From: an uncultured Ruminococcus sp.
GTDB lineage: Bacteria > Bacillota > Clostridia > Oscillospirales > Ruminococcaceae
Direction: 5' to 3'
NCBI GenBank assembly: GCA_902787825.1
Contig: CADAHS010000015.1
Coordinates: 1 to 49,562 of the forward strand
DNA: 49,562 bases
Position numbers and translations under genes: made by a program. The first letter of the stretch is position 1, and every line of letters starts with the position of its first letter. This document shows positions 10,702 through 44,400 of this stretch, one piece after another. The notes below the pieces were generated by a model that ran no database searches, had not been told where the DNA came from, and saw only the letters and a list, made by a program, of their open reading frames with translations.

Positions 10702-10726
10702 AAAAAGCACACCTTTTGGGGTGTGC
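10702..10726 (-). terminator. intrinsic terminator of the 101-aa gene
   Basis: Minus strand GCACACC, seven-base loop, GGTGTGC, then TTTTT; ends six bases past the stop codon. Confidence 0.85.
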
Positions 10727-10731
10727 CTGTT

Positions 10732-11037
10732 TCAGAAGAGGTAGTCGTTCTGCCCGTCTGCAAATTTTGCGTAGCTGACCCGGCGGACATTGTTTCCGCC
10801 GCTTTGATAAGCCATATGGCTCACAGTGCCGCAGAATGCGAGCTGCTTTTCATCAAGCAGGGAAATAATATCCCACGGTTTGCCGAGAAACTCTGTCGGC
10901 CGGTGTTCGCCGAAGCAATAGCCCTCGCTTTCGGCTTTAACAAGGAAGTCATCAAACTCCTGCTGGTCGTTGAAGCGCAGATAGATGTGTCCCTTGTACT
11001 TGTTTCTCAGGTCTTCAAGTGTTCTTTTGTCGTTCAT
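10732..11037 (-). CDS. 101-aa protein of unknown function under SAM riboswitch control
   Basis: I do not recognise this protein. It is 101 residues, soluble, acidic and aromatic, with no signal peptide or membrane segment. YKGHIYLRFNDQQEFDDFLVKAESEGY suggests a small alpha/beta fold; a mid-section FLGKPWDIISLLDEKQLAFCGTVSHMAYQSGG follows. One cysteine in CFGEHRP and one in AFCGTV are the only thiols. GGAGG nine bases before ATG at 11037 makes the start secure, and it has its own promoter, riboswitch, attenuator and 3' terminator, so it is a real monocistronic gene. Its regulation implies a role in methionine, SAM or sulfur metabolism, or in sensing them, which the sequence itself does not reveal. 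Confidence 0.8.
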   Translation of the reverse strand: MNDKRTLEDLRNKYKGHIYLRFNDQQEFDDFLVKAESEGYCFGEHRPTEFLGKPWDIISLLDEKQLAFCGTVSHMAYQSGGNNVRRVSYAKFADGQNDYLF

Positions 11038-11081
11038 GGCAATACCTCCATAAAATAATATTTACACAGGTACATGGGGGT

Positions 11082-11119
11082 AAAAAAAGAACCCATCGTC
11101 ACCGACAGGAACACTTCTT
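11082..11119 (-). terminator. riboswitch-controlled attenuator terminator
   Basis: Minus strand: CCTGTCG (11109-11103), GTGA tetraloop, CGATGGG (11098-11092) with two G-U pairs; outer AAGAA/TTCTT arms; then a seven-T run (11088-11082). It sits between the SAM aptamer and the gene start, as expected for transcriptional OFF control. Confidence 0.8.
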
Positions 11120-11133
11120 ACTGAAAATATGTT

Positions 11134-11218
11134 ACCTATCGGTCAAGCATTAGCACCTTACCTTACGGCAGGTTGCTGTGCGGTCGCAGGGCTTGTCCCT
11201 CACGCACTCTGTATAGGT
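11134..11218 (-). promoter_or_regulatory. SAM-clan riboswitch aptamer (S-box type, apparently lacking P4)
   Basis: Read on the minus strand. P1 is ACCTAT (11218-11213) with ATAGGT (11139-11134). CAGAG-TGCG-TGAGGGA, then GCCC and GCAACC, is the S-box signature. P2 forms from GTGCG/CGCAC and GGG/CCC with a TGA...GA kink-turn-like asymmetry. P3 is ACCT...AGGT enclosing GCC-GTAA-GGT, followed by GGTGCTAAT. The P2 loop CAAGC is exactly complementary to GCTTG just after GCTAAT, the expected pseudoknot. Only four bases then separate the pseudoknot from P1, so the usual P4 hairpin of SAM-I is missing, which recalls the SAM-IV and SAM-I/IV variants. Ligand inferred from these signatures. Confidence 0.88.
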
Positions 11219-11234
11219 GTCTTTGGACAATTTT

Positions 11235-11263
11235 ATGATAACACATATGCGTCGGATCGTCAA
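11235..11263 (-). promoter_or_regulatory. sigma-A promoter of the riboswitch transcript
   Basis: Minus strand TTGACG (11263-11258), 17-bp spacer ending ATGTGT, TATCAT (11240-11235). Transcription would start only about 10 nt before P1 of the aptamer. Confidence 0.85.
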
Positions 11264-18604: not shown

Positions 18605-21529
18605 ATGTTATGCAGCTATTGCATGAATGAGATCGCTCAGGAAAGCGAAAAATGTCCGCACTGCGGAAAAAGCACGGCAGTCAGCGTTGCGGCGCATATG
18701 CTCGTTCCGGGAACAATGCTTTGCGCAAGATATACCGTGGGTATCGCAAAGGGCGAGGGCGGATTCGGCATAACATATATAGGCAGGGATAACAAGCTGG
18801 ACAGGATCGTTGCAATAAAAGAGTACTTCCCGTCAGGACTTGTGAACCGCAACAGCGCTGTTTCCCCGAACGTGACCCAGACATCTGAGCAGCAGGGGCA
18901 GGACGCTTTCAGAAAGGGCTGCGAGAGATTCCTTAACGAGGCAAGGACACTGGCAAAGTTCACAGGCGAACCGGGTATTGTCAATATCATCGACTTTTTT
19001 GAGGAAAACAACACCGCATATATCGTTATGGAGTACCTTGACGGTATAAGCCTTGGCGACTATCTCAAAACAAACGGCGTACTTACCGCAGAGCAGACGC
19101 TGACCATTCTTATGCCGGTGATGCTCTCACTTGAAAAGGTACATAAGCAGGGACTTATCCATCGTGATATAAGCCCGTCAAATATAATGATACTCAAAAA
19201 CACGGTCAAGCTCATTGATTTCGGCGCTGCAAGAAATTCCGCAGGCGACGGGAACAGGAGTATGTCGCTGATGCTCAAGCCGGGCTATGCGCCTGAAGAG
19301 CAGTACCGCAGCAAGGGCGTTCAGGGTCCGTGGACAGATGTTTACGCTTTGTGTGCTACTATTTATAAGTGCATTACCGGGATCACGCCTGACGAAGCCA
19401 ATGACAGGCTGCACAGCGATGAGCTGAAAAAGCCCAGCGAGCTTGGCGTGAAGGTGACACCGTCATTTGAAGCGGCGCTTATGAAGGGCCTGAGCGTTTT
19501 GCAGCAAAACAGGTACCAGAGCGTGCAGGAGCTGGTGGGAGATCTTAGCAGCATCTCGATCTCGGACAAGGTCGAGTTTATGGGAGATCCGCAGCCACGG
19601 ACAACAGTTCCGGCTGATGCACAGCCCCAGGAAGATGACAGCACAAGATGCATCGCCCCGGGTGCAGCAGCTGCAATGATGAACAACAATGCTTACAGAG
19701 CCCCGGTTGCTGCGCAGCAGCCGTACTATCAGCAGGCTCAGCAGGCACCGCAGAATGCTCCTTCAGCACAGGTGTACGCTGCACAGCAGATGCCGCAGAA
19801 TATGGCTGTCGGACAGTCTGCTGAAAGCAGTGAGATAGACCGCAGAGTTGCTCAGAAGGTGAGAGCACGAAAGCAGAAAAAGATCATTGTCACGCTGTTT
19901 GTGCTGCTGGTGATCGCAGCGGTAATTTTTTGCGTTGTGCTTGCAATAAAGGGCGCAAGCGAAAGCAGCTCGCAAAACAGCACCGTGGACCCGGCAAGCG
20001 TGGGCTATGTTGTCACCGGAAGCGACAGCGATAGAATGGTGCAGACCGATGCCAGCGGCGGAAGAAAGAACATTGACGAAGGTTCACACTATGCAAGCTT
20101 TTCAAATACAGTAGTCACACCTGAGGATATCAAAGCGGCAAACGCAAAGAATGCTTCGAGCCTGTATTTCAGCAAATGTCAGATACCGCAGGAGACCTTC
20201 GATACACTGACGGTGATGAAGGATTCGCTCAAATTTGTTTCATTTGTGAAATGTGCGGGCTTCACAAAGATAAAGGCACTTGACGATCTGCCAAATCTCA
20301 CAAGCATTGAGTTCCAGGAATGTGACCTCACAAACGAGTGCTTCAGCGAGCTTGATCTGAGCAAGCTGACACAGCTTTATAAGATCCGGCTGCTCGGCAT
20401 TCCCAAGCTCAGCGATATAAGCTTTATTTCAAAGGCAGGCAGCAAGCTTACAAATGTTGAAATAGGCTACTGTGAGCTGAGCGATATCTCGCCGCTTTCA
20501 AAGGTGCAGAACCTGTATACTCTGAAGATCGAGAACTGCAAGGTGAGCGATATATCACCGCTGAAGGACAAGAATATAAGCTCTCTCAGCCTTACGGGCA
20601 ACAAGATAAAGGATATTTCAGCACTAAGCGGCAATAAGAAGATCTATAATCTCGATGTCAGCAGCAATGAGATCGAATCTATTGCACCGATCGCTGACTG
20701 CGGCGAACTGAAGGATCTGAACCTCAACCATAACAAGATAAGATCTATCAGCGAAGCGGAAAAGCTGATAAGACTTGAAAAGTTTGAGTGCAGTGACAAC
20801 GAGATCCCGGATATCAACGGACTCACCAACTGTACTGTGCTCAAATATGTAAACCTCAGCTCAAACAAGATCTCAGATATATCGCTTCTGAGCAAGAGCA
20901 GCGAGACGCTCACGGCTGTGTTCATCGACAACAACCAGATCTCAGATCTTTCAGCTCTGAGCAAAGCGGCAGGACTTAAATGTCTTAGTTTCAACAACAA
21001 CAAGATATCAAGCCTTGACGCAATAAAGGACTGCACAAAGCTTACTGCGATATCGGGTGACAATAACAGCATACAGTCGCTTGAACCTATCTCGAATATG
21101 TCCTCGATGAGCTGTATAAGCTTTGCACATAACAAGATAAGCGATATGAAGCCTATCAGGAAAATGACCGAGGCGATGAAGGACAGTATGTATGTGCTTG
21201 ATCTGAGCAACAACCAGATCAGTGAGATAGAGCTTGCAAGCGGCAAGAAATATGAAAGCGTGCTGTTTTACAGCAACCCCTTGACGACGCTTGATAAAGT
21301 CAAGGATATAAAGGGTATGACTATTGCGATATCCTACTTTGAGGGCATAGATCTCAAGGAGATCAAAAAGGGGTATTTCAGACTGTCTATTGTTGACTGT
21401 CCTCTTGACAAGCAGGTCGCTATCGAGAAGGAAGTCGGAAAATACAGCGTTTCCTTTGTGACCGCAGAGGAGATGGAGAAGGACACCAACTCAAAGAAGG
21501 AAGCTGTGTTCAAGCGTATAAACAGCTGA
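18605..21529 (+). CDS. transmembrane Ser/Thr kinase with zinc ribbon and extracellular leucine-rich repeats
   Basis: 974 residues. A zinc ribbon (C3, C6, C17, C20) comes first, then a Hanks-type kinase (~40-330): GEGGFG glycine loop at 50-55, K72 in AIKEY, H186-R187-D188 in the HRDISPSN catalytic loop, D205-FG, and a PGYAPEEQY activation segment. A Gln/Ala/Pro-rich juxtamembrane stretch (~345-410) leads to one membrane segment (~424-446). The outer part (~510-900) carries SDS22/internalin-type leucine-rich repeats such as LDVSSNEIESIAPIADCGEL and LNLNHNKIRSIS. The kinase is therefore inside and the LRR outside, a receptor-kinase layout with most residues needed for activity present. It sits between its phosphatase and an FHA-ABC protein. 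Confidence 0.93.
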   Translation: MLCSYCMNEIAQESEKCPHCGKSTAVSVAAHMLVPGTMLCARYTVGIAKGEGGFGITYIGRDNKLDRIVAIKEYFPSGLVNRNSAVSPNVTQTSEQQGQDAFRKGCERFLNEARTLAKFTGEPGIVNIIDFFEENNTAYIVMEYLDGISLGDYLKTNGVLTAEQTLTILMPVMLSLEKVHKQGLIHRDISPSNIMILKNTVKLIDFGAARNSAGDGNRSMSLMLKPGYAPEEQYRSKGVQGPWTDVYALCATIYKCITGITPDEANDRLHSDELKKPSELGVKVTPSFEAALMKGLSVLQQNRYQSVQELVGDLSSISISDKVEFMGDPQPRTTVPADAQPQEDDSTRCIAPGAAAAMMNNNAYRAPVAAQQPYYQQAQQAPQNAPSAQVYAAQQMPQNMAVGQSAESSEIDRRVAQKVRARKQKKIIVTLFVLLVIAAVIFCVVLAIKGASESSSQNSTVDPASVGYVVTGSDSDRMVQTDASGGRKNIDEGSHYASFSNTVVTPEDIKAANAKNASSLYFSKCQIPQETFDTLTVMKDSLKFVSFVKCAGFTKIKALDDLPNLTSIEFQECDLTNECFSELDLSKLTQLYKIRLLGIPKLSDISFISKAGSKLTNVEIGYCELSDISPLSKVQNLYTLKIENCKVSDISPLKDKNISSLSLTGNKIKDISALSGNKKIYNLDVSSNEIESIAPIADCGELKDLNLNHNKIRSISEAEKLIRLEKFECSDNEIPDINGLTNCTVLKYVNLSSNKISDISLLSKSSETLTAVFIDNNQISDLSALSKAAGLKCLSFNNNKISSLDAIKDCTKLTAISGDNNSIQSLEPISNMSSMSCISFAHNKISDMKPIRKMTEAMKDSMYVLDLSNNQISEIELASGKKYESVLFYSNPLTTLDKVKDIKGMTIAISYFEGIDLKEIKKGYFRLSIVDCPLDKQVAIEKEVGKYSVSFVTAEEMEKDTNSKKEAVFKRINS

Positions 21530-33078: not shown

Positions 33079-36000
33079 ATGAAAAAGAAAATCGTATCAG
33101 CGGTGCTTGCATTGCTGATGGTCGCTTCAGCGATGCCGATGTCCGATTTTGCATCATTTGTCCCGGATACGAGCATAACGGCTGTTGCGGCGGACAAACA
33201 GAGTATCAGTGTAGCCGGCTATGATATCGAGTGCACTTATGTTGATATCGACAAGGAATCTAACACGAGATACCTGAAGCTCGTTGTGCCTCAGCAGGCG
33301 AGATTGTTCGGCAAGACAGCAAATCTGACTATCGACACATCAGTTTTTGAGAACGCTCTCAAAAATGCCGGTATTGCTTATTCCGGCGGCGGCATACAGT
33401 ATGTTGAGCTTAACTATAATATCGGTAATGTAAAAGAAGGTAAAAATAAGTATTATTCGTCACTTGCACACGTTGTGTTCAAGGGAAACAAGAACTTTAA
33501 TTTCAAGATCGGTCCGAATATGTTTGCAGGACTTACCAACCTCCAGACAGCAGATCTCAACGGCGTAGTTTCGTATATCGGAACAAGCGCATTTGCAAAC
33601 TGCACAAACTTTGTCGGAACATCAAACAATACTATGGATTTCACGGGCGTTGCTGAGATCGACAGCTCGGCATTCTCCGGCTGTAAATCACTTGCAGGAC
33701 TCAAACTTGGAACCGTGAGCCTGATCGGCAAAAGCACATTCCAGAACTGCATAAAACTCAAGGAAGTCAAGATCCCTGCAAGCGTGTGGCTGATCGGTGC
33801 AAATGCTTTCTCGGGCAATACAGGTCTTGAAAAGGTCGTTTTTGCAGACAAATCACAGCTCAGAGCAGCAGGCGATTATATTTTCAGCGACTGTACTCTG
33901 CTCAGCAAGGTGTTCTACGGCAACGGTACCGTAAATACACTTCCGCCGAGCCTTATGGGCGACAAGGATAACTACGAGCAGGAGCCTAAGCAGCAGGGCA
34001 GCAACAGATTCGACTGGCTGGGCAAAGGTTTGTTCTGCGGCTGTACAGCACTGCAGACATTCGTTATCCCTAAGGGCTTGCAGTATGTTCCTACGGAAAT
34101 GTTCAAGGAATGTACAACTCTCAGGAAAGTATCATTCGGCGATCTGAATAAGAACGATGAAAACGCATCCTGCCACTTTATAGGTGCTGCTTCGTTCCAG
34201 TCCTGCCCTGCACTTGAAGAGATCAGCCTCCCTAATAACTGTCATGTCATCAACCAGAAGGCTTTCAATGCTTGTGCAAAGCTCAGAAAAGTCATAGTTT
34301 CCGACAAACTCTTTGCACTGGGTGCACTTTGCTACGCAAAGGCTGACGGTGAGGATTCAGACGAAGAGCTTTGTAAATTCCAGTGCGGAACATTTGCAAG
34401 CTGTCCGGTACTTTCGTTTGCACCAAGAAGCAAGGAAAAGGATCTTAAACCAAACCAGATCATTATTCCGGACAAGGTTTCATACATACCTACCATGTGC
34501 TTCTCCGGCTGTACGGGTGTCACAAACGTACAGATGAGCAAGGTAAAGGATATCGGCGACAACGCATTCCAGAAATGCTACGCTCTGCCGAACGTGACAG
34601 TTCCGGATGCAGTGGTAACTATCAGAAACAATGTTTTCCAGGATTGTAAGGCTCTCAAATCAGTGGTTTATTCAAAGAACCTCCAGGAGATCTGGTCAAG
34701 CGCATTCAAGGGCTGTACTGTTCTTGCAAACGCAACACCGAGCGGCACTAAGTCAATGACGAATGCCGTTATTATCCCGGCTTCGTGTATGTCAGTTGAA
34801 AAGAATGCATTTGAGAACTGCTCGACATTCAAGTACCTCAACGTGCTCGGCGGTTCAAAGAGCAAGCTCGCTACACTTGGCGAAAGTGCTTTTGCAAACT
34901 GCACATCGCTCGAAGGCTCGACCCAGAACGGTACATCTAATCAGGAGCTTAACTTCCCTAAGGGCGTTACAGTTATCCATCCAAAGGTATTCACAAAGTG
35001 TACTAACCTTAAAACTATCAGATTCGCCGGCAACGTTACCTCGATAGGTGACTCTGCATTTGAAAAGTGCCCGTCACTGACAAAGGTCACTGTCAACGAT
35101 ACTATCCAGCAGATAGGCCTTAACGCATTCAAGGAGTGCACAAGCCTTAGCTCGCTGCCTGTTACCGCAAAAGGCAAGGTCGCATTCACTCAGCTTGAGG
35201 ATATCAAAAACGGAACTTTCCAGGGCTGTACTTCACTCAAGACAGCAGATATGTCAGGAGCAAAGAACATCTCAGCTATCGGAAACAACGCTTTTGAAAA
35301 GTGCTCGGCACTCACAAAGGTAGTTCTTCCGAACAACGGCAGACTTGAAAGCATCGGCGACTATGCATTCAACTCCTGCTCGGCTCTCGCTCTGGTAACG
35401 GATTCTGCTTCCAACAAGAACAGCAAGATCCCTAACACCGTAAAGTCTATCGGCAGAAATGCTTTCGCAGGTACAGATCTTAGAAATATGACGATCGTTA
35501 AGCCAAAGGATTCGACCGCTTACAATACTATCGGCGACAGCGCATTCTCAAATTGTAAGAAGCTGAAGACCGTTGATTTCTCCGGTTCTAACCTCACTAC
35601 TCTTGAAAAGAATATATTCAGTACCGATACTGAACTTGTAAGTGTTAAGCTGCCGACTACCCTTACAAAGATCAATGACAATGCTTTCGCAGGCTGCGTA
35701 AAGCTCAGCATGATCAACAGCACCAAGAAGGGCGAGGCTATTTTGCCAAGCAAGCTCAAAACTATCGCTAACCAGGCATTCAAGGACTGCCATTGCCTGG
35801 CAAGAATGGTTATCCCTGCTGCTACTGACGATATCGCTCTGAGCGCTTGGAACTTCTCGCTCAAGTATACTCCGGACGATCTCAAAACAGGAAAGATCAA
35901 CCCGCTCAAGGAGATCGTTGTAAACTCAAAGAACGCAAACTATAAGAGCATTGCAGGTGTAATGTACAACAAGAGCGGCACAGAGCTTCTTCTGTACCCT

Positions 36001-37551
36001 GTAATGAAGCCTGATACTTCATTCACCGTTCCTTCAACTGTTACAACTATCACCGACAGCGCATTCTCCTCAAACAACTATATCCAGAACGTTACTATCC
36101 CTGCAAGCGTGAAGAAGATCGAGCAGAACGCATTCAACAAGTGCGAATCTCTCAAAACTGTCAGGTTCGGCAACAACAAGACCGTTTCTTTTAACGCCAA
36201 AGCTTTCACCGGACTTACCGGCAAGCCAATGGTAGCTTTCTATGCTGCAAAGGGATCATCAGCTGAAAAGTATGCAAGAGCCAACAGCAAGGTCATCAAG
36301 TTTATCGACAATAACAAGGTCGCTGCAAAGCTTACTCTTGCTGAGGGCAGCGTTTACTATGCAGGCAAGGGAAGATTCCAGCTCACACCTGTTCTTACAA
36401 CAGCCAAGGGCGAAAAGACCACGGACGTTCTCGAGTGGACATCAAGCGATACAAGCATCGCTACCGTAGATAACGAGGGATTCGTTACCCCGAGAAAGAC
36501 CGGCAAGGCAATTATCACAGTCAAGTCCTCAGGCGGACTCACAACTAAGATCACTGTTAATATCGGTGACGCAGTTGAGCGTATCGCAGGAAGCAGACGT
36601 GAGTATACCGCTACGGCGATCTCAGAGAAGTGCTACACATCTGCTGATACTGTCATCGTTACAACAGGCTATGACTTCCACGATGCGCTTATCTCAGTAC
36701 CTCTTGCAAAGGCTTATAACGCTCCGGTCCTGCTGGTTCATATGAGCCTCCTGCACGACGATGTCAAGAGCGAGATCAAGAGACTCGGTGCAAAGAATAT
36801 CATCGTTGTAAATACGACCGGTACAAAGACTTCTATCAGCTCAAAGCTCATCAAAGAACTCGGAAAACTCGGCAAGGTGACACAGGTCTCTGCAAACAGC
36901 TATCTGAAGACCTCTGAGAAGGTCGCTGAAAAGCTTCGTACACAGATAAAGACAAATACCAACGGTTCGACCAAGGCTCCTTCTGAGGTGTTCTTCGTAA
37001 CAAACGCAGCTTATGCTGATGCACTTTCTGTATCACCTGTAGCTGCTATCAAGGGTGCACCGATAATCTATGTCGATCCTAAGGCTAAGGATCTTGATGC
37101 AACCGTTAAGAGTTACCTCGCTTCTATCAAGAACAGCGTAAAGAAGGTATATATCGTAGGTGGAACAGTTGCTATGCCGACAACCGTTGAGAAGAGCATC
37201 AAGAAGGTTCTGTCAAATGTCCGCAAGAGTAACTTTATCAGATTTGCAGGTGCCCGCAGATATGAGACCTGCATAATGATCAACAAGTATTTCACCAATA
37301 CCGATAAGGTGCTTACAAGCAAATCTCTGTGTGTGGCTAAGGGACTTGACTTCCCGGATGCACTTGCAGGCGGCGTGCTCGCAGCATCTATGAAGGCTCC
37401 TCTGTTCCTTGCAGATCAGGTTGTAAATCCTGACTCAAAGAAGGCGCAGGTCAACTACCTCAAGAGCAAGAAGGCTGACAGGATCATCGTGTTCGGCGGT
37501 AAAGTAGCCGTTCCCGATCAGGTGGTAAACTTTGTGAAGAATACTAAGTAA
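33079..37551 (+). CDS. BspA-like LRR surface protein with CW_binding_2 anchor (1490 aa)
   Basis: Signal peptide (MKKKIVSAVLALLMVASAMPMSDFASF), then ~950 residues of BspA/TpLRR-type leucine-rich repeats with the LxxIxxxAFxxCxxLxxVxxP pattern (for example IGDSAFEKCPSLTKVTV), interrupted by a few longer loops. A Big_2 Ig-like domain follows at ~1085-1165 (VLEWTSSDTSIATVDNEGFVTPRKTGKAIITV). The C terminus (~1165-1490) is three CW_binding_2 repeats (PF04122): RIAGSRREYTATAISEKCY, VILVTTGYDFHDALISVPLA-type and FAGARRYETCIMIN, which hold proteins to the wall non-covalently in Clostridia. Likely an adhesin or substrate-binding surface protein. AAGGAGG before ATG. Paralogue of the next gene. Confidence 0.92.
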   Translation: MKKKIVSAVLALLMVASAMPMSDFASFVPDTSITAVAADKQSISVAGYDIECTYVDIDKESNTRYLKLVVPQQARLFGKTANLTIDTSVFENALKNAGIAYSGGGIQYVELNYNIGNVKEGKNKYYSSLAHVVFKGNKNFNFKIGPNMFAGLTNLQTADLNGVVSYIGTSAFANCTNFVGTSNNTMDFTGVAEIDSSAFSGCKSLAGLKLGTVSLIGKSTFQNCIKLKEVKIPASVWLIGANAFSGNTGLEKVVFADKSQLRAAGDYIFSDCTLLSKVFYGNGTVNTLPPSLMGDKDNYEQEPKQQGSNRFDWLGKGLFCGCTALQTFVIPKGLQYVPTEMFKECTTLRKVSFGDLNKNDENASCHFIGAASFQSCPALEEISLPNNCHVINQKAFNACAKLRKVIVSDKLFALGALCYAKADGEDSDEELCKFQCGTFASCPVLSFAPRSKEKDLKPNQIIIPDKVSYIPTMCFSGCTGVTNVQMSKVKDIGDNAFQKCYALPNVTVPDAVVTIRNNVFQDCKALKSVVYSKNLQEIWSSAFKGCTVLANATPSGTKSMTNAVIIPASCMSVEKNAFENCSTFKYLNVLGGSKSKLATLGESAFANCTSLEGSTQNGTSNQELNFPKGVTVIHPKVFTKCTNLKTIRFAGNVTSIGDSAFEKCPSLTKVTVNDTIQQIGLNAFKECTSLSSLPVTAKGKVAFTQLEDIKNGTFQGCTSLKTADMSGAKNISAIGNNAFEKCSALTKVVLPNNGRLESIGDYAFNSCSALALVTDSASNKNSKIPNTVKSIGRNAFAGTDLRNMTIVKPKDSTAYNTIGDSAFSNCKKLKTVDFSGSNLTTLEKNIFSTDTELVSVKLPTTLTKINDNAFAGCVKLSMINSTKKGEAILPSKLKTIANQAFKDCHCLARMVIPAATDDIALSAWNFSLKYTPDDLKTGKINPLKEIVVNSKNANYKSIAGVMYNKSGTELLLYPVMKPDTSFTVPSTVTTITDSAFSSNNYIQNVTIPASVKKIEQNAFNKCESLKTVRFGNNKTVSFNAKAFTGLTGKPMVAFYAAKGSSAEKYARANSKVIKFIDNNKVAAKLTLAEGSVYYAGKGRFQLTPVLTTAKGEKTTDVLEWTSSDTSIATVDNEGFVTPRKTGKAIITVKSSGGLTTKITVNIGDAVERIAGSRREYTATAISEKCYTSADTVIVTTGYDFHDALISVPLAKAYNAPVLLVHMSLLHDDVKSEIKRLGAKNIIVVNTTGTKTSISSKLIKELGKLGKVTQVSANSYLKTSEKVAEKLRTQIKTNTNGSTKAPSEVFFVTNAAYADALSVSPVAAIKGAPIIYVDPKAKDLDATVKSYLASIKNSVKKVYIVGGTVAMPTTVEKSIKKVLSNVRKSNFIRFAGARRYETCIMINKYFTNTDKVLTSKSLCVAKGLDFPDALAGGVLAASMKAPLFLADQVVNPDSKKAQVNYLKSKKADRIIVFGGKVAVPDQVVNFVKNTK

Positions 37552-37782: not shown

Positions 37783-40700
37783 ATGAAAAAAAGGATCATG
37801 GCAATGGTGATCGCACTGTTGATGGCGGCATCAGCCTTGCCAATGTCAGATATCGCGGAATTTGTCCCGGATATCAGCGTGAAAGCCACGGCAGATGATG
37901 AGACCGAAGTGGGGGTCGGAAAACAAGCAAGTATTATGCTGGATAACGGCAAGTCGGCATATTTTACGGCGACGTTCTATCCCAACAATGTTTTGATCGA
38001 ACCGAAAAATCCTGATAATGATGAGCAAGCAGAATTGTTTTACGATTCAGGAAATATCAAGATCACTTCTGCAAAGATGGAAAAGATCAGAACAGCAGCT
38101 GCTCAGGTCTTAGGTGCACCGCCAAGTGCTATTACGCTTACGAATATCGTTTCTGACGAGAAAAAAAATAGCATGAAAAAGAAGCTTAAAACCAAGATAA
38201 ATAATGTGGACTTATCCGGCGCCTATACAACTGATAAGGACTGTTATATAGCTTATCTGGGCGATGATATCTTTAATGGTTTTACATCACTGCAGACAGT
38301 GAAGCTCAACAGCAATATCCGCAGTATCGGAAAAAATGCTTTCAATGGCTGCAGTATGTTTATCGGTGAAGGTGCCCAGGGTATTGATCTTTCAAATGTT
38401 ATGTCCATTGGCGAGAGTGCATTCAGTGGCTGTCCGATACTTGAAAAGGTCAAGCTCGGCAACGGACTAACAGAGATACCCAGTAAGGCATTCAATAACT
38501 GTAAAAAGCTTGCTGAGATAAATATCCCGTCAGAAGTAACGAGAATAGGTGAAAGTGCATTCGCTGGTGATGTGGCTTTGCGTAAGGTCACTTTTTACAC
38601 CAAGCATTCATTGGTAATATTCAAAAAGGCATTCTCCGGCTGTAGTGCACTTGCTAATATTAATTATGTAGACAATAAAAACGTTACGATCAATAATACG
38701 CTCCCTCCGCTGCTGGCTCAGGCCGGCAATGGCTGCTTTGAGAACTGCAAGAGTCTTAACACGCTGAAGATCGGTTCTATGCTCACTTATCTTCCTCCGA
38801 ATATGTTCAGTGGCTGCAGCGGTCTGAAAACCCTGAAATTTACCGATCTGAACAACAGCTTTCTGGAATGGGTCGGACAAAATGCGTTTAACGGCTGTAC
38901 GGAACTTACAGAGCTTATATTCCCTAAGAGCGAAGATTTCAAGGGCTTTTGCAGCAGTGTTTTCAGCGGCTGCAGCAAGCTCAAAAAAGTAATCGTTCCG
39001 GATAATACCAAGTATCTCGGCGGTAAAGCAGAAATTGACAAAGATGATGAAGATAAAGAAAGGTTTATATACACACCATTTGAACAGTATTATGATCCGG
39101 AAGATCCTGATAAGAAGCTTGACACCGGCGGAAACCTGTTCTATAACTGTAAACAGCTTTCCTTCGCAGGCTGGAGCAACAAGGACGTTCTCAGCGATAA
39201 TCAGGTGCTGATACCGTCAGGTGTAGTCTATATCCCGACATTTACTTTCAGAAATTGCTCGGGGCTAACTCTTATGGATCTTACGGATTATATAGGAGAT
39301 GATATAGGCGACTCCGCTTTTGAGGGCTGTACTTCGCTCAAGAAGGTATCTCTCCCGAATTCTGTAAAAAGGATCAGAACAAAGCTGTTCTATAATTGTT
39401 CATCTCTTGTTGAGGTGATCTATTCAAATGAGCTGGAGGAGATCGAAGATAGTGCTTTTGAAGGCTGCAAGCTGCTGTATAAAGTCTATCCACGCGGACA
39501 AAAGGGGATAGACGGAGCGATCATATTCCCTAAAACACTCGTATCTCTGGGCAAGAACGCATTCAGAAACTGCGAATCCTTCAAGTACCTCAATATTCTT
39601 GGCGGAGATAAAGCAGCACTTACAGCTTTGTCCGGCAACGCTTTTGAAAATTGCAAGAAATTTGAGGGTGCGACCAAGGACGGTACTTCAAGCGAAGAGA
39701 TCTCTTTCCCTGAAGGTATCCATGTTACCGGCGAATATGTTTTCAGGGGCTGCACAAACCTGAAAAAGATCCGTTTCACGGGCGATCTGAACGTTATAAA
39801 TAAGGGCTTGTTCCAGAATTGTACTTCCCTTGAAACAGTGGTCGTTAATCCTACTATCACTCAGATCATGGAGAGTGCATTTGAAAACTGTTCATCACTT
39901 AAAAAAGCACCTGTAACAGAAAAAGGCAAATCAGGTATCAGCCAGCTTACGGTGGTAAACGATAAGGCATTCAATAAGTGCACATCTATCACAGAGATCG
40001 ATATATCTGACTGTAAAGATCTGATGAGCATAGGTAAGAACTCTTTCTCCGGCTGTACTAATCTGGCTGCAGTATATCTCCCGCAGGACGCTTCGCTGGG
40101 AACTATCGGCGACAGTGCGTTCCAGGGCTGTACCAAGCTCAAAGTTATCACAGCAAATAAGAATGACCGCATCAATAGTCTGTTCCCAAATACCATCTGG
40201 GAGATCGGCACATCGGCATTCAGCTCAACAGCACTCAAGAGCATTACTATCGTAAAACCAACAAAGACCGATAACAAAACTACGATCGGAGCTTCAGCCT
40301 TTGCAAGATGTGAAAAGCTCACCTCCGCTGATCTGTCAAAATCTACACTTGTGCATCTTTCAGACAGCACATTCTCAGATGATGCTGAGCTTACAACGCT
40401 TGCTCTGCCTGCAGCTACTCTTAACAGCATCGGTAAGTCAGCACTTTCAGGCTGCACAAAGCTCAGCACTATCAACAGCAAGACCAAGGGCAAAGCTGTG
40501 ATACCTGCCAGCGTTAAATCTATCGGAGATTCTGCATTCAAGGACAACGTGTGCATTTCAAAGTATGTGCTTTCCGAAAATACGGATACTATCTCTTTGT
40601 CAGCATTTGATATATCAAGAATGCCATCTGCTGATGATATTGAAAAGGGTAATGCTGACCCGCTGAAAGAATTTGATGTGGACGAAAACAACCCTAATTT

Positions 40701-43700
40701 CATGAGCATCAACGGAGTCCTCTACGATAAGGACCCTGATGACTACCAGCCCAAAACTCTGCTCATCTATCCGATGATGAAAGAGGACGAGACCCTTGAG
40801 ATCCCCGATACCGTTGAGCAGATAAGATCCAAGGCAGTCAGCAACAACACAAATCTTAAAAATGTCACTATCAACAAAGATCTGGAAAATATCAACGATA
40901 ATGCGTTCTTCAACTGCACCGGACTTACAAAGGTAGAGTTCGGAACGAACAAGAACGTAAAATTTGCAAAGACTGCGTTCTCAGGACTTACAGGTAAGCC
41001 AAAGGTCGGATTCTATGCCGCAAAAGGTTCTACCGCTGAGAAATATGCACAAGCAAACGAAAATACTATCCAGTTCTACGACAACAATATGAAGGCTGCT
41101 ACGATCTCGATAGATCAGGGCGAGTCTGTGGTTTATCCTAAGTCGACAAGATTTGATCTCACAGTCACACTTAAAACTGCATCAGGTCAGAAGACTAACG
41201 ATATGCTCAGCTGGTCCAGCAGTAATATCAATGTTGTAAGCGTTGATAACGAAGGACATTGCACGACTAAGAATATCGACGGTTCATCTACCCTTACAGT
41301 CATCACCGAGGGCGGACTCAAGGCAACGATCGTTGTAAGCGTCGGAAAGAAAACTATCACCGACCAGATGGTAACTCTTTCGCAGACTTCCTTTACATAC
41401 GACGGAAAGGAAAAGAAGCCAACCGTTACCGTTAAGGATGGAACTTCAACCCTCAGATCGGGAACCGATTATACTGTAGCTTATTCCGCTAACACAAACG
41501 TTGGTACTGCAACTGTTACTGTCACCGGTAACGGAGTGTACAGAGGAAGCATCCAGAAGACCTTCAAGATAGCTGCAAAGCCTATAACGAACATGGCTCT
41601 GAGCATTTCTCCTGAAAGCTTTGTTTACAGCGGTGCAGCCAGGAAGCCGGCAGTAACGCTCAAAGACGGTGCAAAGGTGCTCACACTCGGTACAGATTAT
41701 ACCGTCACATATGCAAATAACACAAACGTCGGAACAGCGACCCTGAAAGTAACAGGAAGGGGCAATTACAGTTCGTCTGTATCCAGGACATTTGCGATCA
41801 CCGCTAAGTCCATAGCAGGTGCGACCGTTACCGTTGAACCGAGCAGCTACACCTACGACGGAAAGGCAAAGACACCTAAGGTCACCGTTATGGACGGCAA
41901 AAAAGTGCTTGTGAACGGAACAGATTATACCCTTACCTATAAGAACAACACCGCTGTCGGAACGGCGAGTGTGATAGTTTACGGAAAGGGCAACTACAAC
42001 AAGAATACCTTCGCATCAGCAACATTCAATATCAATAAGATATCTCTGAAAAATGCAGCCGTTACCCTTGCTGCAACATCTTACAGCTACGACGGAACAG
42101 CTAAGAAGCCTGCCGTTACCGTAAAATCAGGCGAACAGATACTGAAAAACGGCGTTGACTATACCGTGACCTATTCCAACAATGTCAACCCCGGAACAGC
42201 AACTGTAACCGTAACAGGAGCAGGAAAGTACGGCGGAAGTGTTTCAAAAACGTTTACCATCGCTGAAACACGAGCAAAGCCTATCAACGCTGCATCTGTC
42301 AGCCTCTCACAGACAGCTTACAGCTACGACGGCACAGCAAAAAGACCTGTTGTAACAGTTAAGGACGCTCAGAAGGTGCTTAAAGCAAACACCGATTATA
42401 CAGTAGTCTACACCAATAATACCAAAGCAGGAACAGCGACCGTGACCGTAACGGGTGCAGGAAAGTACGGCGGAAACGTTGTAAAGAACTTCACTATCAA
42501 AGCAAAGTCTGTCGCCGGTGCAGCCGTAAGCCTTTCACAGACAGCTTACAGCTACGACGGTTCAGCAAAGAAGCCTGTTGTAACTGTCAAGGACGGTTAT
42601 AAGGTGCTCAAAGCAAATACGGATTATACAGTTACCTATACTAATAATACCAACGCAGGAACAGCAACTGTTACCGTTACAGGTAAGGGCAACTACGATC
42701 AGTCTGTGGCAAAGACGTTCACCATCAAGGCAAAGTCGATCACCGGTGCAGCCGTAAGCCTTTCACAGACAGCTTACAGCTACGACGGTTCAGCAAAGAA
42801 GCCTGTTGTAACTGTCAAGGACGGCAAGAAGGTGCTCAAAGCAAATACGGATTATACAGTAGCCTATACCAATAATACCAACGCAGGAACAGCAACTGTT
42901 ACCGTTACAGGTAAGGGCAACTACGCTCAGTCTGTGACAAGATCGTTCACCATCAAGGCAAAGTCGATCACCGGTGCAGCTGTGACCTTCACTCCCGCAT
43001 CAATGGTCTATACAGGCACTGCACTCAGACCGACCGTGACCGTCAGCGACGGCAAGAAGGTGCTCAAAGCAAATACGGATTATACAGTTACCTATACTAA
43101 AAATACCAACGTCGGAACAGCAACATTCACCGTTACCGGCAAGGGCAACTATAATCAGTCTGTAAAGAAGACCTTCAGGATAACCGCAAAGCCGATAGCT
43201 GATCTTAAATTCACTCTTTCCCAGACCAAGTTCAATTACGACGGTAAGGAAAAAACACCTAAGGTAACTATCACCGACGGCAAAAAGCAGCTCAAGGAAG
43301 GTACGGACTATACAATTTCGTATTCAAACAACGTCGAGGGCAGCAAGAAGGCAGCCGTCACCGTAACAGCAAAGGGCAATTACAAGGGAAAAAAGACTCT
43401 GCTGTTCACTATCAACGATAACGAAAAGTCACTTTTCCGCCTGCAGGGAAGCAGACGTGAGTTCACAGCTACCGCGATCTCAGCTAAGTGCTATGATCAG
43501 GCTGATACAGTCATCGTAACCACAGGCTATGACTTCCACGATGCACTTATCTCAGTACCTCTTGCAACAGCTTACGACGCACCTATACTGCTTGTTCATA
43601 TGAATGTTCTGCACGACGATGTCAAGGACGAGATCGTAAGACTCGGTGCAAAGAATATCATCGTTGTAAACACAACAGGTACTCAGTATACTATCAGCAA

Positions 43701-44400
43701 AGCCGTTATCGACCAGCTCAGAGAGCTTGGAAAGGTATCTCAGATCTCTACGGGCAGCTATATCAAGACAGCCGAAAAGGTCGCAGAGAACCTCCGGACG
43801 AGGATCAAGACCAATACCAACGGCAGCACCTCAGCTCCTAAGGAAGTATTCTTTGTAACAAATGCAGCATACGCAGATGCACTTTCCGCATCACCTGTAG
43901 CTGCTATCAAGGGTGCACCGATCATCTATGTCGATCCTAAGGCTAAGGATCTTGATTCAGCAGTCAAGAGCTATCTCAGCACTATCAAGGGCAGCGTTAC
44001 CAAGGCGTACATCATAGGCGGAACAGTAGCTATGCCGACAACTGTTGAGAAAAAGATCCAGCAGGCACTTCCGGGCAGCCGGGTAATAAGATTTGCAGGT
44101 GCCCGCAGATATGAGACCTGCATAATGATCAACGAGTATTTCACCAATACCGATAAGGTCCTCACAAGCAGATCGCTTTGTGTGGCAAAGGGACTTGACT
44201 TCCCTGACGCTCTCGCAGGCGGCGTGTTCGCAGCAGCCAGAAAGGCACCTGTGTTCCTTGTGGATCCTGTCGTAAATCCTGATTCCAAGAAGGCTCAGAT
44301 AGAGTATCTCAAGAAGAAAAAGGCTAACAAGATCATCGTGTTCGGCGGTCCTGTTGCAGTTCCGGATCAGGTAGTGAACTTTGTGAAGAATACAAAGTAA
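37783..44400 (+). CDS. giant LRR surface protein with nine Ig-like repeats and CW_binding_2 anchor (2205 aa)
   Basis: Signal peptide (MKKRIMAMVIALLMAASALPMSDIAEF) clearly related to that of the 1490-aa paralogue. Residues ~140-1090 are BspA-type leucine-rich repeats (IGDSAFQGCTKLKVI and similar). A Big_2-like domain lies at ~1100-1190. Residues ~1195-1880 are nine repeats of ~76 residues: AAVSLSQTAYSYDGSAKKPVVTVKDG...NTDYTVTYTNNTNAGTATVTVTGKGNY, close to MBG/YDG Ig-like modules, which extend a protein away from the cell. The C-terminal ~320 residues are three CW_binding_2 repeats. GAGGAGG before ATG at 37783. Probably a long adhesin or receptor in which the repeats form a stalk and the LRR a ligand-binding head. 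Confidence 0.92.
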   Translation: MKKRIMAMVIALLMAASALPMSDIAEFVPDISVKATADDETEVGVGKQASIMLDNGKSAYFTATFYPNNVLIEPKNPDNDEQAELFYDSGNIKITSAKMEKIRTAAAQVLGAPPSAITLTNIVSDEKKNSMKKKLKTKINNVDLSGAYTTDKDCYIAYLGDDIFNGFTSLQTVKLNSNIRSIGKNAFNGCSMFIGEGAQGIDLSNVMSIGESAFSGCPILEKVKLGNGLTEIPSKAFNNCKKLAEINIPSEVTRIGESAFAGDVALRKVTFYTKHSLVIFKKAFSGCSALANINYVDNKNVTINNTLPPLLAQAGNGCFENCKSLNTLKIGSMLTYLPPNMFSGCSGLKTLKFTDLNNSFLEWVGQNAFNGCTELTELIFPKSEDFKGFCSSVFSGCSKLKKVIVPDNTKYLGGKAEIDKDDEDKERFIYTPFEQYYDPEDPDKKLDTGGNLFYNCKQLSFAGWSNKDVLSDNQVLIPSGVVYIPTFTFRNCSGLTLMDLTDYIGDDIGDSAFEGCTSLKKVSLPNSVKRIRTKLFYNCSSLVEVIYSNELEEIEDSAFEGCKLLYKVYPRGQKGIDGAIIFPKTLVSLGKNAFRNCESFKYLNILGGDKAALTALSGNAFENCKKFEGATKDGTSSEEISFPEGIHVTGEYVFRGCTNLKKIRFTGDLNVINKGLFQNCTSLETVVVNPTITQIMESAFENCSSLKKAPVTEKGKSGISQLTVVNDKAFNKCTSITEIDISDCKDLMSIGKNSFSGCTNLAAVYLPQDASLGTIGDSAFQGCTKLKVITANKNDRINSLFPNTIWEIGTSAFSSTALKSITIVKPTKTDNKTTIGASAFARCEKLTSADLSKSTLVHLSDSTFSDDAELTTLALPAATLNSIGKSALSGCTKLSTINSKTKGKAVIPASVKSIGDSAFKDNVCISKYVLSENTDTISLSAFDISRMPSADDIEKGNADPLKEFDVDENNPNFMSINGVLYDKDPDDYQPKTLLIYPMMKEDETLEIPDTVEQIRSKAVSNNTNLKNVTINKDLENINDNAFFNCTGLTKVEFGTNKNVKFAKTAFSGLTGKPKVGFYAAKGSTAEKYAQANENTIQFYDNNMKAATISIDQGESVVYPKSTRFDLTVTLKTASGQKTNDMLSWSSSNINVVSVDNEGHCTTKNIDGSSTLTVITEGGLKATIVVSVGKKTITDQMVTLSQTSFTYDGKEKKPTVTVKDGTSTLRSGTDYTVAYSANTNVGTATVTVTGNGVYRGSIQKTFKIAAKPITNMALSISPESFVYSGAARKPAVTLKDGAKVLTLGTDYTVTYANNTNVGTATLKVTGRGNYSSSVSRTFAITAKSIAGATVTVEPSSYTYDGKAKTPKVTVMDGKKVLVNGTDYTLTYKNNTAVGTASVIVYGKGNYNKNTFASATFNINKISLKNAAVTLAATSYSYDGTAKKPAVTVKSGEQILKNGVDYTVTYSNNVNPGTATVTVTGAGKYGGSVSKTFTIAETRAKPINAASVSLSQTAYSYDGTAKRPVVTVKDAQKVLKANTDYTVVYTNNTKAGTATVTVTGAGKYGGNVVKNFTIKAKSVAGAAVSLSQTAYSYDGSAKKPVVTVKDGYKVLKANTDYTVTYTNNTNAGTATVTVTGKGNYDQSVAKTFTIKAKSITGAAVSLSQTAYSYDGSAKKPVVTVKDGKKVLKANTDYTVAYTNNTNAGTATVTVTGKGNYAQSVTRSFTIKAKSITGAAVTFTPASMVYTGTALRPTVTVSDGKKVLKANTDYTVTYTKNTNVGTATFTVTGKGNYNQSVKKTFRITAKPIADLKFTLSQTKFNYDGKEKTPKVTITDGKKQLKEGTDYTISYSNNVEGSKKAAVTVTAKGNYKGKKTLLFTINDNEKSLFRLQGSRREFTATAISAKCYDQADTVIVTTGYDFHDALISVPLATAYDAPILLVHMNVLHDDVKDEIVRLGAKNIIVVNTTGTQYTISKAVIDQLRELGKVSQISTGSYIKTAEKVAENLRTRIKTNTNGSTSAPKEVFFVTNAAYADALSASPVAAIKGAPIIYVDPKAKDLDSAVKSYLSTIKGSVTKAYIIGGTVAMPTTVEKKIQQALPGSRVIRFAGARRYETCIMINEYFTNTDKVLTSRSLCVAKGLDFPDALAGGVFAAARKAPVFLVDPVVNPDSKKAQIEYLKKKKANKIIVFGGPVAVPDQVVNFVKNTK
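41362..43420 (+). repeat. nine tandem ~76-codon Ig-like repeats
   Basis: Nine units with the YDG...P.VTV.DG...DY.V.Y..N...GTATVTVTG.G.Y core. Units 6 and 7 (42523-42750 and 42751-42978) are each 228 bp and roughly 95% identical in DNA by eye, a recent duplication; outer units are more diverged. Confidence 0.92.

What the first reader, a model, noticed from the sequence alone, without database searches (positions are those of the whole stretch)
10702..11263. P4-less SAM-clan riboswitch controlling an orphan 101-aa protein
The sequence shows a complete unit: promoter, S-box-like aptamer with a matching CAAGC/GCTTG pseudoknot, attenuator, start codon, gene and terminator. The aptamer lacks the P4 hairpin between pseudoknot and P1, unlike SAM-I and closer to SAM-IV or SAM-I/IV. 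The gene behind it resembles no methionine, cysteine or transport protein I know. A dedicated riboswitch for an unrecognised small protein suggests an undescribed role in SAM or sulfur balance, and could name a new protein family by its regulation.
Basis: partly seen in the sequence, partly recalled or inferred. Interest (0 to 1): 0.87.

Follow-up and report, generated by a model that had tools for sequence, protein, structure and literature searches.

The report
Double-locked SAM riboswitch, unnamed protein family
A compact RNA sensor for the metabolite SAM appears to control a small protein of unknown function by two successive locks (stopping the RNA, then hiding the ribosome site), and the same pair recurs in related bacteria and in phages.

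Summary
On the minus strand, 11219-11133 is a SAM-I riboswitch (Rfam RF00162, 60.8 bits) with the P2-loop pseudoknot kept and P4 reduced to 1 nt. It lies between a promoter, a terminator and a 101-aa ORF. It is not SAM-IV (no match) and scores only 28.9 bits as SAM-I/IV. The protein matches no Pfam, NCBIfam, PADLOC or PDB family convincingly, but it is not a lone orphan. Of 46 homologous loci, 39 carry a full P4-less aptamer upstream, as do a second copy in the same genome, 3 of 3 further genomes and 4 phage or viral loci. P4-less aptamers also precede metK. Its 5' arm can instead pair with the aptamer's own 5' strand. This suggests one aptamer with two OFF locks, transcriptional and then translational. 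In one phage lineage the gene sits beside DNA methyltransferases and SAM synthetase. The protein's function is inferred only: something needed when SAM is low.

The parts
11235..11263 (-). sigma-70-type promoter, TTGACG - 17 nt - TATCAT, TG before the second hexamer
11133..11219 (-). P4-less SAM-I riboswitch aptamer
   Evidence: RF00162 60.8 bits; covariation on 58 relatives
11203..11216 (-). aptamer 5' strand CUAUACAGAGUGCG (P1 5', J1/2, P2 5'); inferred anti-sequestor strand that can pair with the 5' arm of the ribosome-site hairpin
   Evidence: duplex -13.2 kcal/mol, 0 of 200 shuffles as good
11191..11195 (-). pseudoknot 5' strand CAAGC in the P2 loop (4 pairs counted; the last C also pairs in P2b)
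11144..11148 (-). pseudoknot 3' strand GCUUG; P4 would follow here and is missing
11135..11142 (-). CCGAUAGG, includes the P1 3' strand; 5' strand of the antiterminator
   Evidence: antiterminator permutation test
11102..11109 (-). CCUGUCGG, shared strand: antiterminator 3' strand or terminator 5' arm
11082..11109 (-). intrinsic terminator CCUGUCG-GUGA-CGAUGGG followed by UUCUUUUUUU (lock 1)
11043..11072 (-). hairpin over the ribosome-binding site (lock 2): 5' arm UACCUGUGUAAAUA, 3' arm UUUUAUGGAGGUA
   Evidence: -11.0 kcal/mol, p=0.035; 8 of 200 shuffles fold as well
11045..11049 (-). Shine-Dalgarno GGAGG
   Evidence: sequence
10732..11037 (-). ORF of 101 aa, member of an unnamed small-protein family
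10702..10728 (-). terminator of the gene

Best explanation
A P4-less SAM-I riboswitch turns off a small-protein gene when SAM is plentiful, using two locks read from one aptamer. With SAM, P1 and P2 are held. The P1 3' strand cannot form the antiterminator, so the terminator forms. Transcripts that escape fold a second hairpin over the Shine-Dalgarno site. Without SAM, the P1 3' strand pairs with the terminator's 5' arm. The P1 5'/J1-2/P2 5' strand pairs with the 5' arm of the Shine-Dalgarno hairpin, so the gene is read and translated. Shown by sequence comparison: the aptamer, the terminator, and the conservation and co-variation of both switching helices across relatives. Inferred: that SAM is the ligand, the OFF direction, and that both locks act in the cell. 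The protein is therefore made when SAM runs short. Because the same riboswitch type elsewhere controls metK, and one phage lineage carries the gene beside SAM synthetase and DNA methyltransferases, I think it most likely that the protein restores or spares SAM, for example by acting on a methyltransferase or on MetK. This last step is a guess (about 0.3).
For: Aptamer: RF00162 60.8 bits; 12 of 28 pairs with changes on both sides, 0 of 500 shuffles. SAM pocket: A45/A46 equivalents kept in 52 of 56 aptamers (partly by eye). P4-less aptamers precede metK in 4 of the 17 strong matches among 396 family genomes (metK confirmed by phmmer) and in 2 of 35 viral contigs, which carry the same leader. Linkage: 39 of 46 protein loci, 3 of 3 further genomes whose aptamer DNA is in no earlier locus, 4 of 4 phage or viral loci found by protein. 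Lock 2: aptamer 5'-strand pairing p<=0.05 in 36 of 44 leaders against 1 of 13 metK leaders; ribosome-site hairpin p<=0.05 in 29 of 44 against 1 of 13. Swapping aptamer 5' strands among 22 representative leaders never reached the true total (0 of 2000); likewise for 19 antiterminators. Viral set fetched later: 13 and 14 of 19 family leaders. One sub-group has only lock 2 and no terminator (L048, L054, L056, L057, L059, L060).
Against: No binding, termination or translation assay exists. Hairpin p>0.05 in 14 or 15 of 44 leaders and pairing p>0.05 in 4 or 8 of 44, by window choice; L072 and L051 fail both tests in both calls. The chosen 14-nt aptamer window is the best-pairing one in only 9 of 44 leaders and among the best 11 in 37; many better ones overlap it. 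In the viral set, 6 of 19 family leaders fail pairing and 5 the hairpin, while the one viral metK leader passes pairing. The aptamer 5' strand is itself SD-like (AGAGUG), so part of its complementarity could be a by-product of the hairpin's pairing with the SD. The permutation test does not correct fully for relatedness. Five of 46 homologous loci have no aptamer (L044, L046, L047, L052, L058). Four of 56 aptamers alter A45/A46. The 44 leaders include L082 and L035, whose first ORF is not of the family, L078/L079/L081, whose membership is not established, and L041, whose start my script mis-set.
Confidence: 0.72

Rival explanations
1. An ordinary terminator-only SAM-I OFF switch. The hairpin over the ribosome-binding site is incidental or acts constitutively, and the pairing with the aptamer is a by-product of SD complementarity.
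For: Transcription attenuation dominates in Firmicutes (PMC2258182, section 9). The hairpin is weak in 14-15 of 44 leaders. The aptamer's AGAG resembles an SD.
Against: 36 of 44 against 1 of 13 controls for the pairing. Complementarity extends beyond the SD mimic (11 nt in L002; 14 pairs in L097) and follows changes in the aptamer strand (L030, L036, L128). One sub-group has no terminator at all.
Confidence: 0.2
2. A variant SAM-I aptamer that senses another ligand (such as SAH or a methionine-related compound) and controls an unrelated pathway.
For: Loss of P4. A few members alter pocket bases (L034, L059: A45G; L024: A46G; L028: UU). The target gene is unknown.
Against: The pocket bases A45/A46 are unchanged in 52 of 56. 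The same subtype precedes metK in bacteria and on two viral contigs.
Confidence: 0.1
3. The protein is a toxin or anti-phage effector kept silent by a double lock and released when SAM falls, as when a phage depletes it.
For: Patchy distribution (8 of 396 family genomes; 5 of 29 in the genus), no neighbour shared by more than 10 of 50 loci, a tight double lock, phage and viral carriage, decayed copies.
Against: The only PADLOC match is 1 of 33 members, weak. One phage lineage carries it beside its own methyltransferases.
Confidence: 0.15

Closest known systems
SAM-I (S-box) riboswitch, Rfam RF00162
   Same: P1, k-turn P2 with loop pseudoknot, P3, SAM-contact bases, terminator/antiterminator OFF design
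   Different: P4 absent; a recurrent subtype of its own (model R1 scores 76-110 bits for it, 30-51 bits for the metK leaders with ordinary aptamers, with four in between at 58-64, one of them with P4); tied mostly to one small-protein family
SAM-IV (RF00634) and SAM-I/IV (RF01725) riboswitches
   Same: same clan and predicted ligand pocket; SAM-IV also lacks P4
   Different: SAM-IV has PK-2/P5, SAM-I/IV lacks PK-1 and has P4 (PMC6890682, passages); model scores none and 28.9 bits here
Tandem bi-mechanism SAM-II/SAM-V riboswitches (PMC9481103, section 29 read)
   Same: termination first, ribosome-site control second, same metabolite
   Different: there two aptamers, here one aptamer whose two strands each serve one platform
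Dual transcription/translation attenuation class of Barrick and Breaker 2007 (PMC2258182, section 9 read)
   Same: one aptamer predicted to act at both levels
   Different: from recall, there one terminator hairpin also covers the ribosome site; [quoted passage not shown] Here two separate hairpins with separate switching strands

Membership tests
SAM-I riboswitch (RF00162) | covariance-model score over the curated cut-off | tested here: met
   60.8 against 44.4 bits
SAM-I riboswitch (RF00162) | four-way junction with P4 | tested here: not met
   P4 replaced by 1 nt in the window; only 3-4 nt between pseudoknot and GAU in the 50 of 56 parsed by script, the other 6 printed and read as equally short
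SAM-I riboswitch (RF00162) | P2-loop pseudoknot | tested here: met
   98.7% of cells paired, 2 of 4 pairs with changes on both sides
SAM-I riboswitch (RF00162) | SAM-contact bases | tested here: met
   A45/A46 kept in 52 of 56; the two top P1 pairs (A-U, U-A) invariant in 57 rows; contact numbering partly from PMC6890682, partly recalled
SAM-I riboswitch (RF00162) | binds SAM | not testable with these tools
   needs in-line probing or ITC
SAM-IV riboswitch | model score | tested here: not met
   no match at E<=1 in the genome
SAM-I/IV riboswitch | model score over cut-off | tested here: not met
   28.9 against 41.1 bits
Any named protein family (Pfam, NCBIfam, PHROGs, PADLOC, PDB) | significant profile match of the family | tested here: not met
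   0 matches for the window protein in the four family libraries; at most 2 of 33 members match any one family, best E 6e-4 for a family matched twice; PDB profile search best E 0.048

The most novel reading that the evidence does not exclude
A mobile, phage-shared cassette: one SAM aptamer uses both of its P1 strands to run two successive OFF locks on a new protein family that adjusts the cell's or phage's SAM economy (sparing SAM from DNA methylation or boosting SAM synthesis) whenever SAM runs short.
Probability: 0.35. Interest if true: 0.85.

Novelty: new variant of a known kind. Interest (0 to 1): 0.74.

Why it matters
It defines a P4-less SAM-I subtype, gives a testable example of one aptamer driving two different expression platforms, and attaches a physiological signal (SAM shortage) to a protein family with no name. 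Carriage by phages next to methyltransferases and SAM synthetase suggests that SAM supply is sensed and managed during infection, which can now be tested.

Tried and rejected
SAM-IV and SAM-I/IV membership: rejected by score. Protein function by family search: Pfam, NCBIfam, PHROGs, PADLOC and PDB sequence search gave nothing usable (best PHROG 28738, E 6e-4 in 2 of 33 members, no function given). Conserved neighbours: of 50 loci, the largest shared neighbour cluster covers 10 (single-linkage, its longest member low-complexity, most of the ten from the closely related L048 group) and the next 6, a YspA/SLOG-like protein; nothing is general. Pfam of 128 neighbours was mixed. Link to the adjacent bioY/bioB genes: one neighbour of the closest relative L021 is a dihydroorotate dehydrogenase, not bioY, so I treat it as coincidence; this was not checked in all loci. 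Plasmids: no match to the one member searched, L063. Literature: no paper on a P4-less SAM-I subtype, on this protein family, or on SAM riboswitches in phages appeared in the listings. That library is open-access only, listings were capped at 8-20 rows and the terms were few; the one phage-riboswitch paper listed (PMC9004378, passages) is about glutamine riboswitches.

Full report
What is there. The minus strand of window 11263-10702 carries one self-contained transcription unit: promoter, SAM-I aptamer, terminator with antiterminator, Shine-Dalgarno hairpin, a 101-aa ORF and a terminator. The aptamer scores 60.8 bits with RF00162, 28.9 bits with SAM-I/IV (below its 41.1 cut-off) and nothing with SAM-IV. 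The Rfam alignment shows the P2-loop pseudoknot strands intact and P4 reduced to one nucleotide.

The genome. It holds three RF00162 matches. One, with P4, precedes metK (L001). The other two are P4-less, and each precedes a copy of the same small protein: the window copy and G000:C24:27912-28205, 59% identical over residues 4-101.

The protein family. The window protein has no Pfam or NCBIfam match. Of the 33 members of alignment A5, at most 1 or 2 match any one PHROG, Pfam, PADLOC or NCBIfam family, weakly, and a profile finds no convincing solved structure (best E 0.048). The shared signature is A(E)xEGFxFG....PTE. The distribution is patchy: 8 of 396 genomes of the family, 5 of 29 of the genus, 5 of 391 of the class. 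Variants: tandem duplication in L065/L066 and a C-terminal extension in L026/L027.

Linkage of protein and RNA. A scan of the species-genome collection (84,980 species) returned 46 homologous loci. A covariance model R1 built from 11 P4-less aptamers, some of which recur among the 46, finds a full aptamer upstream (76-109 bits) in 39 of the 46. L050 is cut by the contig end (34.7 bits), L038 keeps a decayed remnant (25.2 bits), and L044, L046, L047, L052 and L058 have none. In L035 another small ORF stands between aptamer and family gene. Further genomes: G520, G565 and G668, 3 of 3 with aptamers at 91-103 bits, whose aptamer DNA is in no earlier locus. The reverse search over 396 family genomes gave 17 matches of 87 bits or more, then a gap to 64 bits. 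Of the 17, 8 precede family members (one, L016, without an ATG at the expected start), 4 precede short ORFs (MNIT..., L078-L081; HMM E 0.001 to about 1, so membership is not established; L080 is frameshifted), 4 precede metK (L070, L071, L073, L076) and 1 precedes another ORF (L082). L083 in the metK-bearing genus g80 looks intermediate: the same core with a P4 hairpin.

Is the aptamer under selection? On 58 aptamers (57 distinct rows, fitted to the model's structure, so leaning towards it) 96.3% of cells pair, 12 of 28 pairs change on both sides, and 0 of 500 shuffles reach the pairing, double-change or covariation values, though 291 of 500 reach the number of pair types. Sliding the partners destroys the signal. 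A45/A46 are kept in 52 of 56 aptamers (53 distinct): 43 parsed by script, 9 read by eye from printed sequence; exceptions L034, L059, L024, L028.

Two platforms. The first is the usual S-box one: the P1 3' strand CCGAUAGG pairs with CCUGUCGG (antiterminator, -19.5 kcal/mol for the fold, 0 of 200 shuffles), or CCUGUCG pairs with CGAUGGG as a terminator with a U tract. Across 19 representative leaders with a called terminator, swapping P1 3' strands never reaches the true total (0 of 2000). The second was not in the finding. After the terminator, most leaders fold a hairpin over the Shine-Dalgarno site whose 5' arm (often GCACUCUUU-like) is also complementary to the aptamer's 5' strand (UAAAGAGUGC). 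From 56 aptamers I dropped 2 without a called ORF (L016, L025), 3 with a long gap (L032, L033, L080) and 3 duplicates, leaving 48 leaders: 44 not before metK and 4 before metK. With a post-terminator window, 40 of 44 have pairing p<=0.05 and 30 of 44 hairpin p<=0.05. With a fixed 42-nt window, 36 and 29 of 44 (28 both), against 1 and 1 of 13 metK leaders. The 13 are the 4 P4-less ones, whose window still holds part of the terminator, and 9 others with low R1 scores; P4 was seen in 6 of these 9, L087 gave no gathering-level match and L088 and L091 were not scanned. L092 (masked letters) and L093 (ORF not metK) were left out. The chosen 14-nt aptamer window is the best-pairing one of about 80 in 9 of 44 leaders and among the best 11 in 37; many of the better ones overlap it. 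Of 43 leaders (L041 left out, start mis-set), the SD core is at least 3/5 paired in 39, and the aptamer pairing overlaps the hairpin's 5' arm in 40; these two counts have no shuffle control. Swapping aptamer 5' strands among 22 representatives: -315 against -268 +/- 8.5 kcal/mol, 0 of 2000. Telling cases: L030 (GUAC in both), L036 (GGGAGUGCG/CGCACUCCC), L128 (GAGUAUG/CAUACUC). The L048 sub-group has no terminator, only the ribosome-site hairpin. The window's own leader shows both: pairing -13.2 kcal/mol (0 of 200 shuffles) and hairpin -11.0 (p 0.035).

Phages. The complete Ruminococcus phage NatCom_28274 carries the protein behind a 101-bit aptamer. It is the only match among 50,697 phage records for the one member searched (L063). 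Three IMG/VR contigs found by protein also have aptamers. Two aptamer patterns found 37 IMG/VR stretches, 35 with R1 matches of 76-102 bits (27 distinct aptamers); L108 and L117 had none. Of the 35, 25 precede family members (20 distinct leaders; L121 included), 2 precede metK (L114, L120, the same leader), 8 precede other ORFs. L119 and L139 are the contigs of L099 and L098. Among the 39 viral or phage loci examined, a related cassette of Dcm-type methyltransferase and ParB-type N6/N4 methyltransferase lies near the gene in 10 (four of them, L132, L133, L135 and L142, the same leader), parts of it in L122 and L124, and metK plus ParB-methyltransferase in L114 and L120; most of the others show none. 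The cassettes are homologous, so this is one lineage, not independent cases. In L116 a full SAM synthetase is part of it; L097 has a C-terminal part at the edge of the fetched stretch; L113 and L132 have only an N-terminal-like domain. Viral leaders: of 19 distinct family leaders 13 pass the pairing test and 14 the hairpin test; of 8 others 5 and 5; the one metK leader passes pairing, not the hairpin.

How it most likely works. SAM bound: P1/P2 held, terminator forms; escaping transcripts hide their ribosome site. SAM low: both aptamer strands are freed and open both locks. The protein is thus made at low SAM. Its action is unknown. The metK alternates under the same RNA and the methyltransferase company argue for SAM economy; a toxin or defence role remains open.

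Comparison. Bi-mechanism control by SAM is known with two aptamers in tandem (SAM-II/SAM-V; PMC9481103, passages and section 29), and dual attenuation by one aptamer is a predicted category (PMC2258182, section 9). The use of both sides of one aptamer for two separate hairpins, in a P4-less SAM-I subtype tied to one protein family, was not found in the searches made (see Tried and rejected). I rate it a new variant of a known kind.

Noticed in passing
L114:11495-12756, L120:363-1624: Viral SAM synthetase gene directly behind a P4-less SAM-I aptamer and followed by a ParB-type DNA methyltransferase; the two contigs share the same leader.
   Followed up: partly
L070, L071, L073, L076: In genus g80 a metK of 348 aa is under the P4-less aptamer with a terminator and no clear ribosome-site hairpin; L083 of the same genus keeps P4.
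   Followed up: partly
L016:1407 onward; L080: Copies that look decayed behind intact aptamers: the expected start codon reads ATA in L016, and L080 is frameshifted.
   Followed up: no
L046:1796-2143, L058:789-1169: Family members without aptamer whose open frame runs on upstream close to another conserved ORF; a short stretch resembling the P3 3' strand remains.
   Followed up: no
L024:2696-3181, L029:7521-8042, L057:3233-3694, L059:2416-2835, L062:2418-2837, L099:2816-3307: A YspA/SLOG-like protein recurs near the gene in 6 of 50 loci of several lineages.
   Followed up: no
L028, L034, L059, L024: Aptamers with altered SAM-pocket bases (A45/A46), possible ligand variants or decay.
   Followed up: no
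window 33079-37551 and 37783-44400: Two very large BspA-type leucine-rich-repeat proteins with cell-wall-binding repeats in tandem; also a kinase fused to leucine-rich repeats at 18605-21529.
   Followed up: no
window 10585-9057, minus strand: bioY and bioB follow the unit behind a consensus-perfect promoter TTGACA-17-TATAAT at 10638-10610.
   Followed up: no
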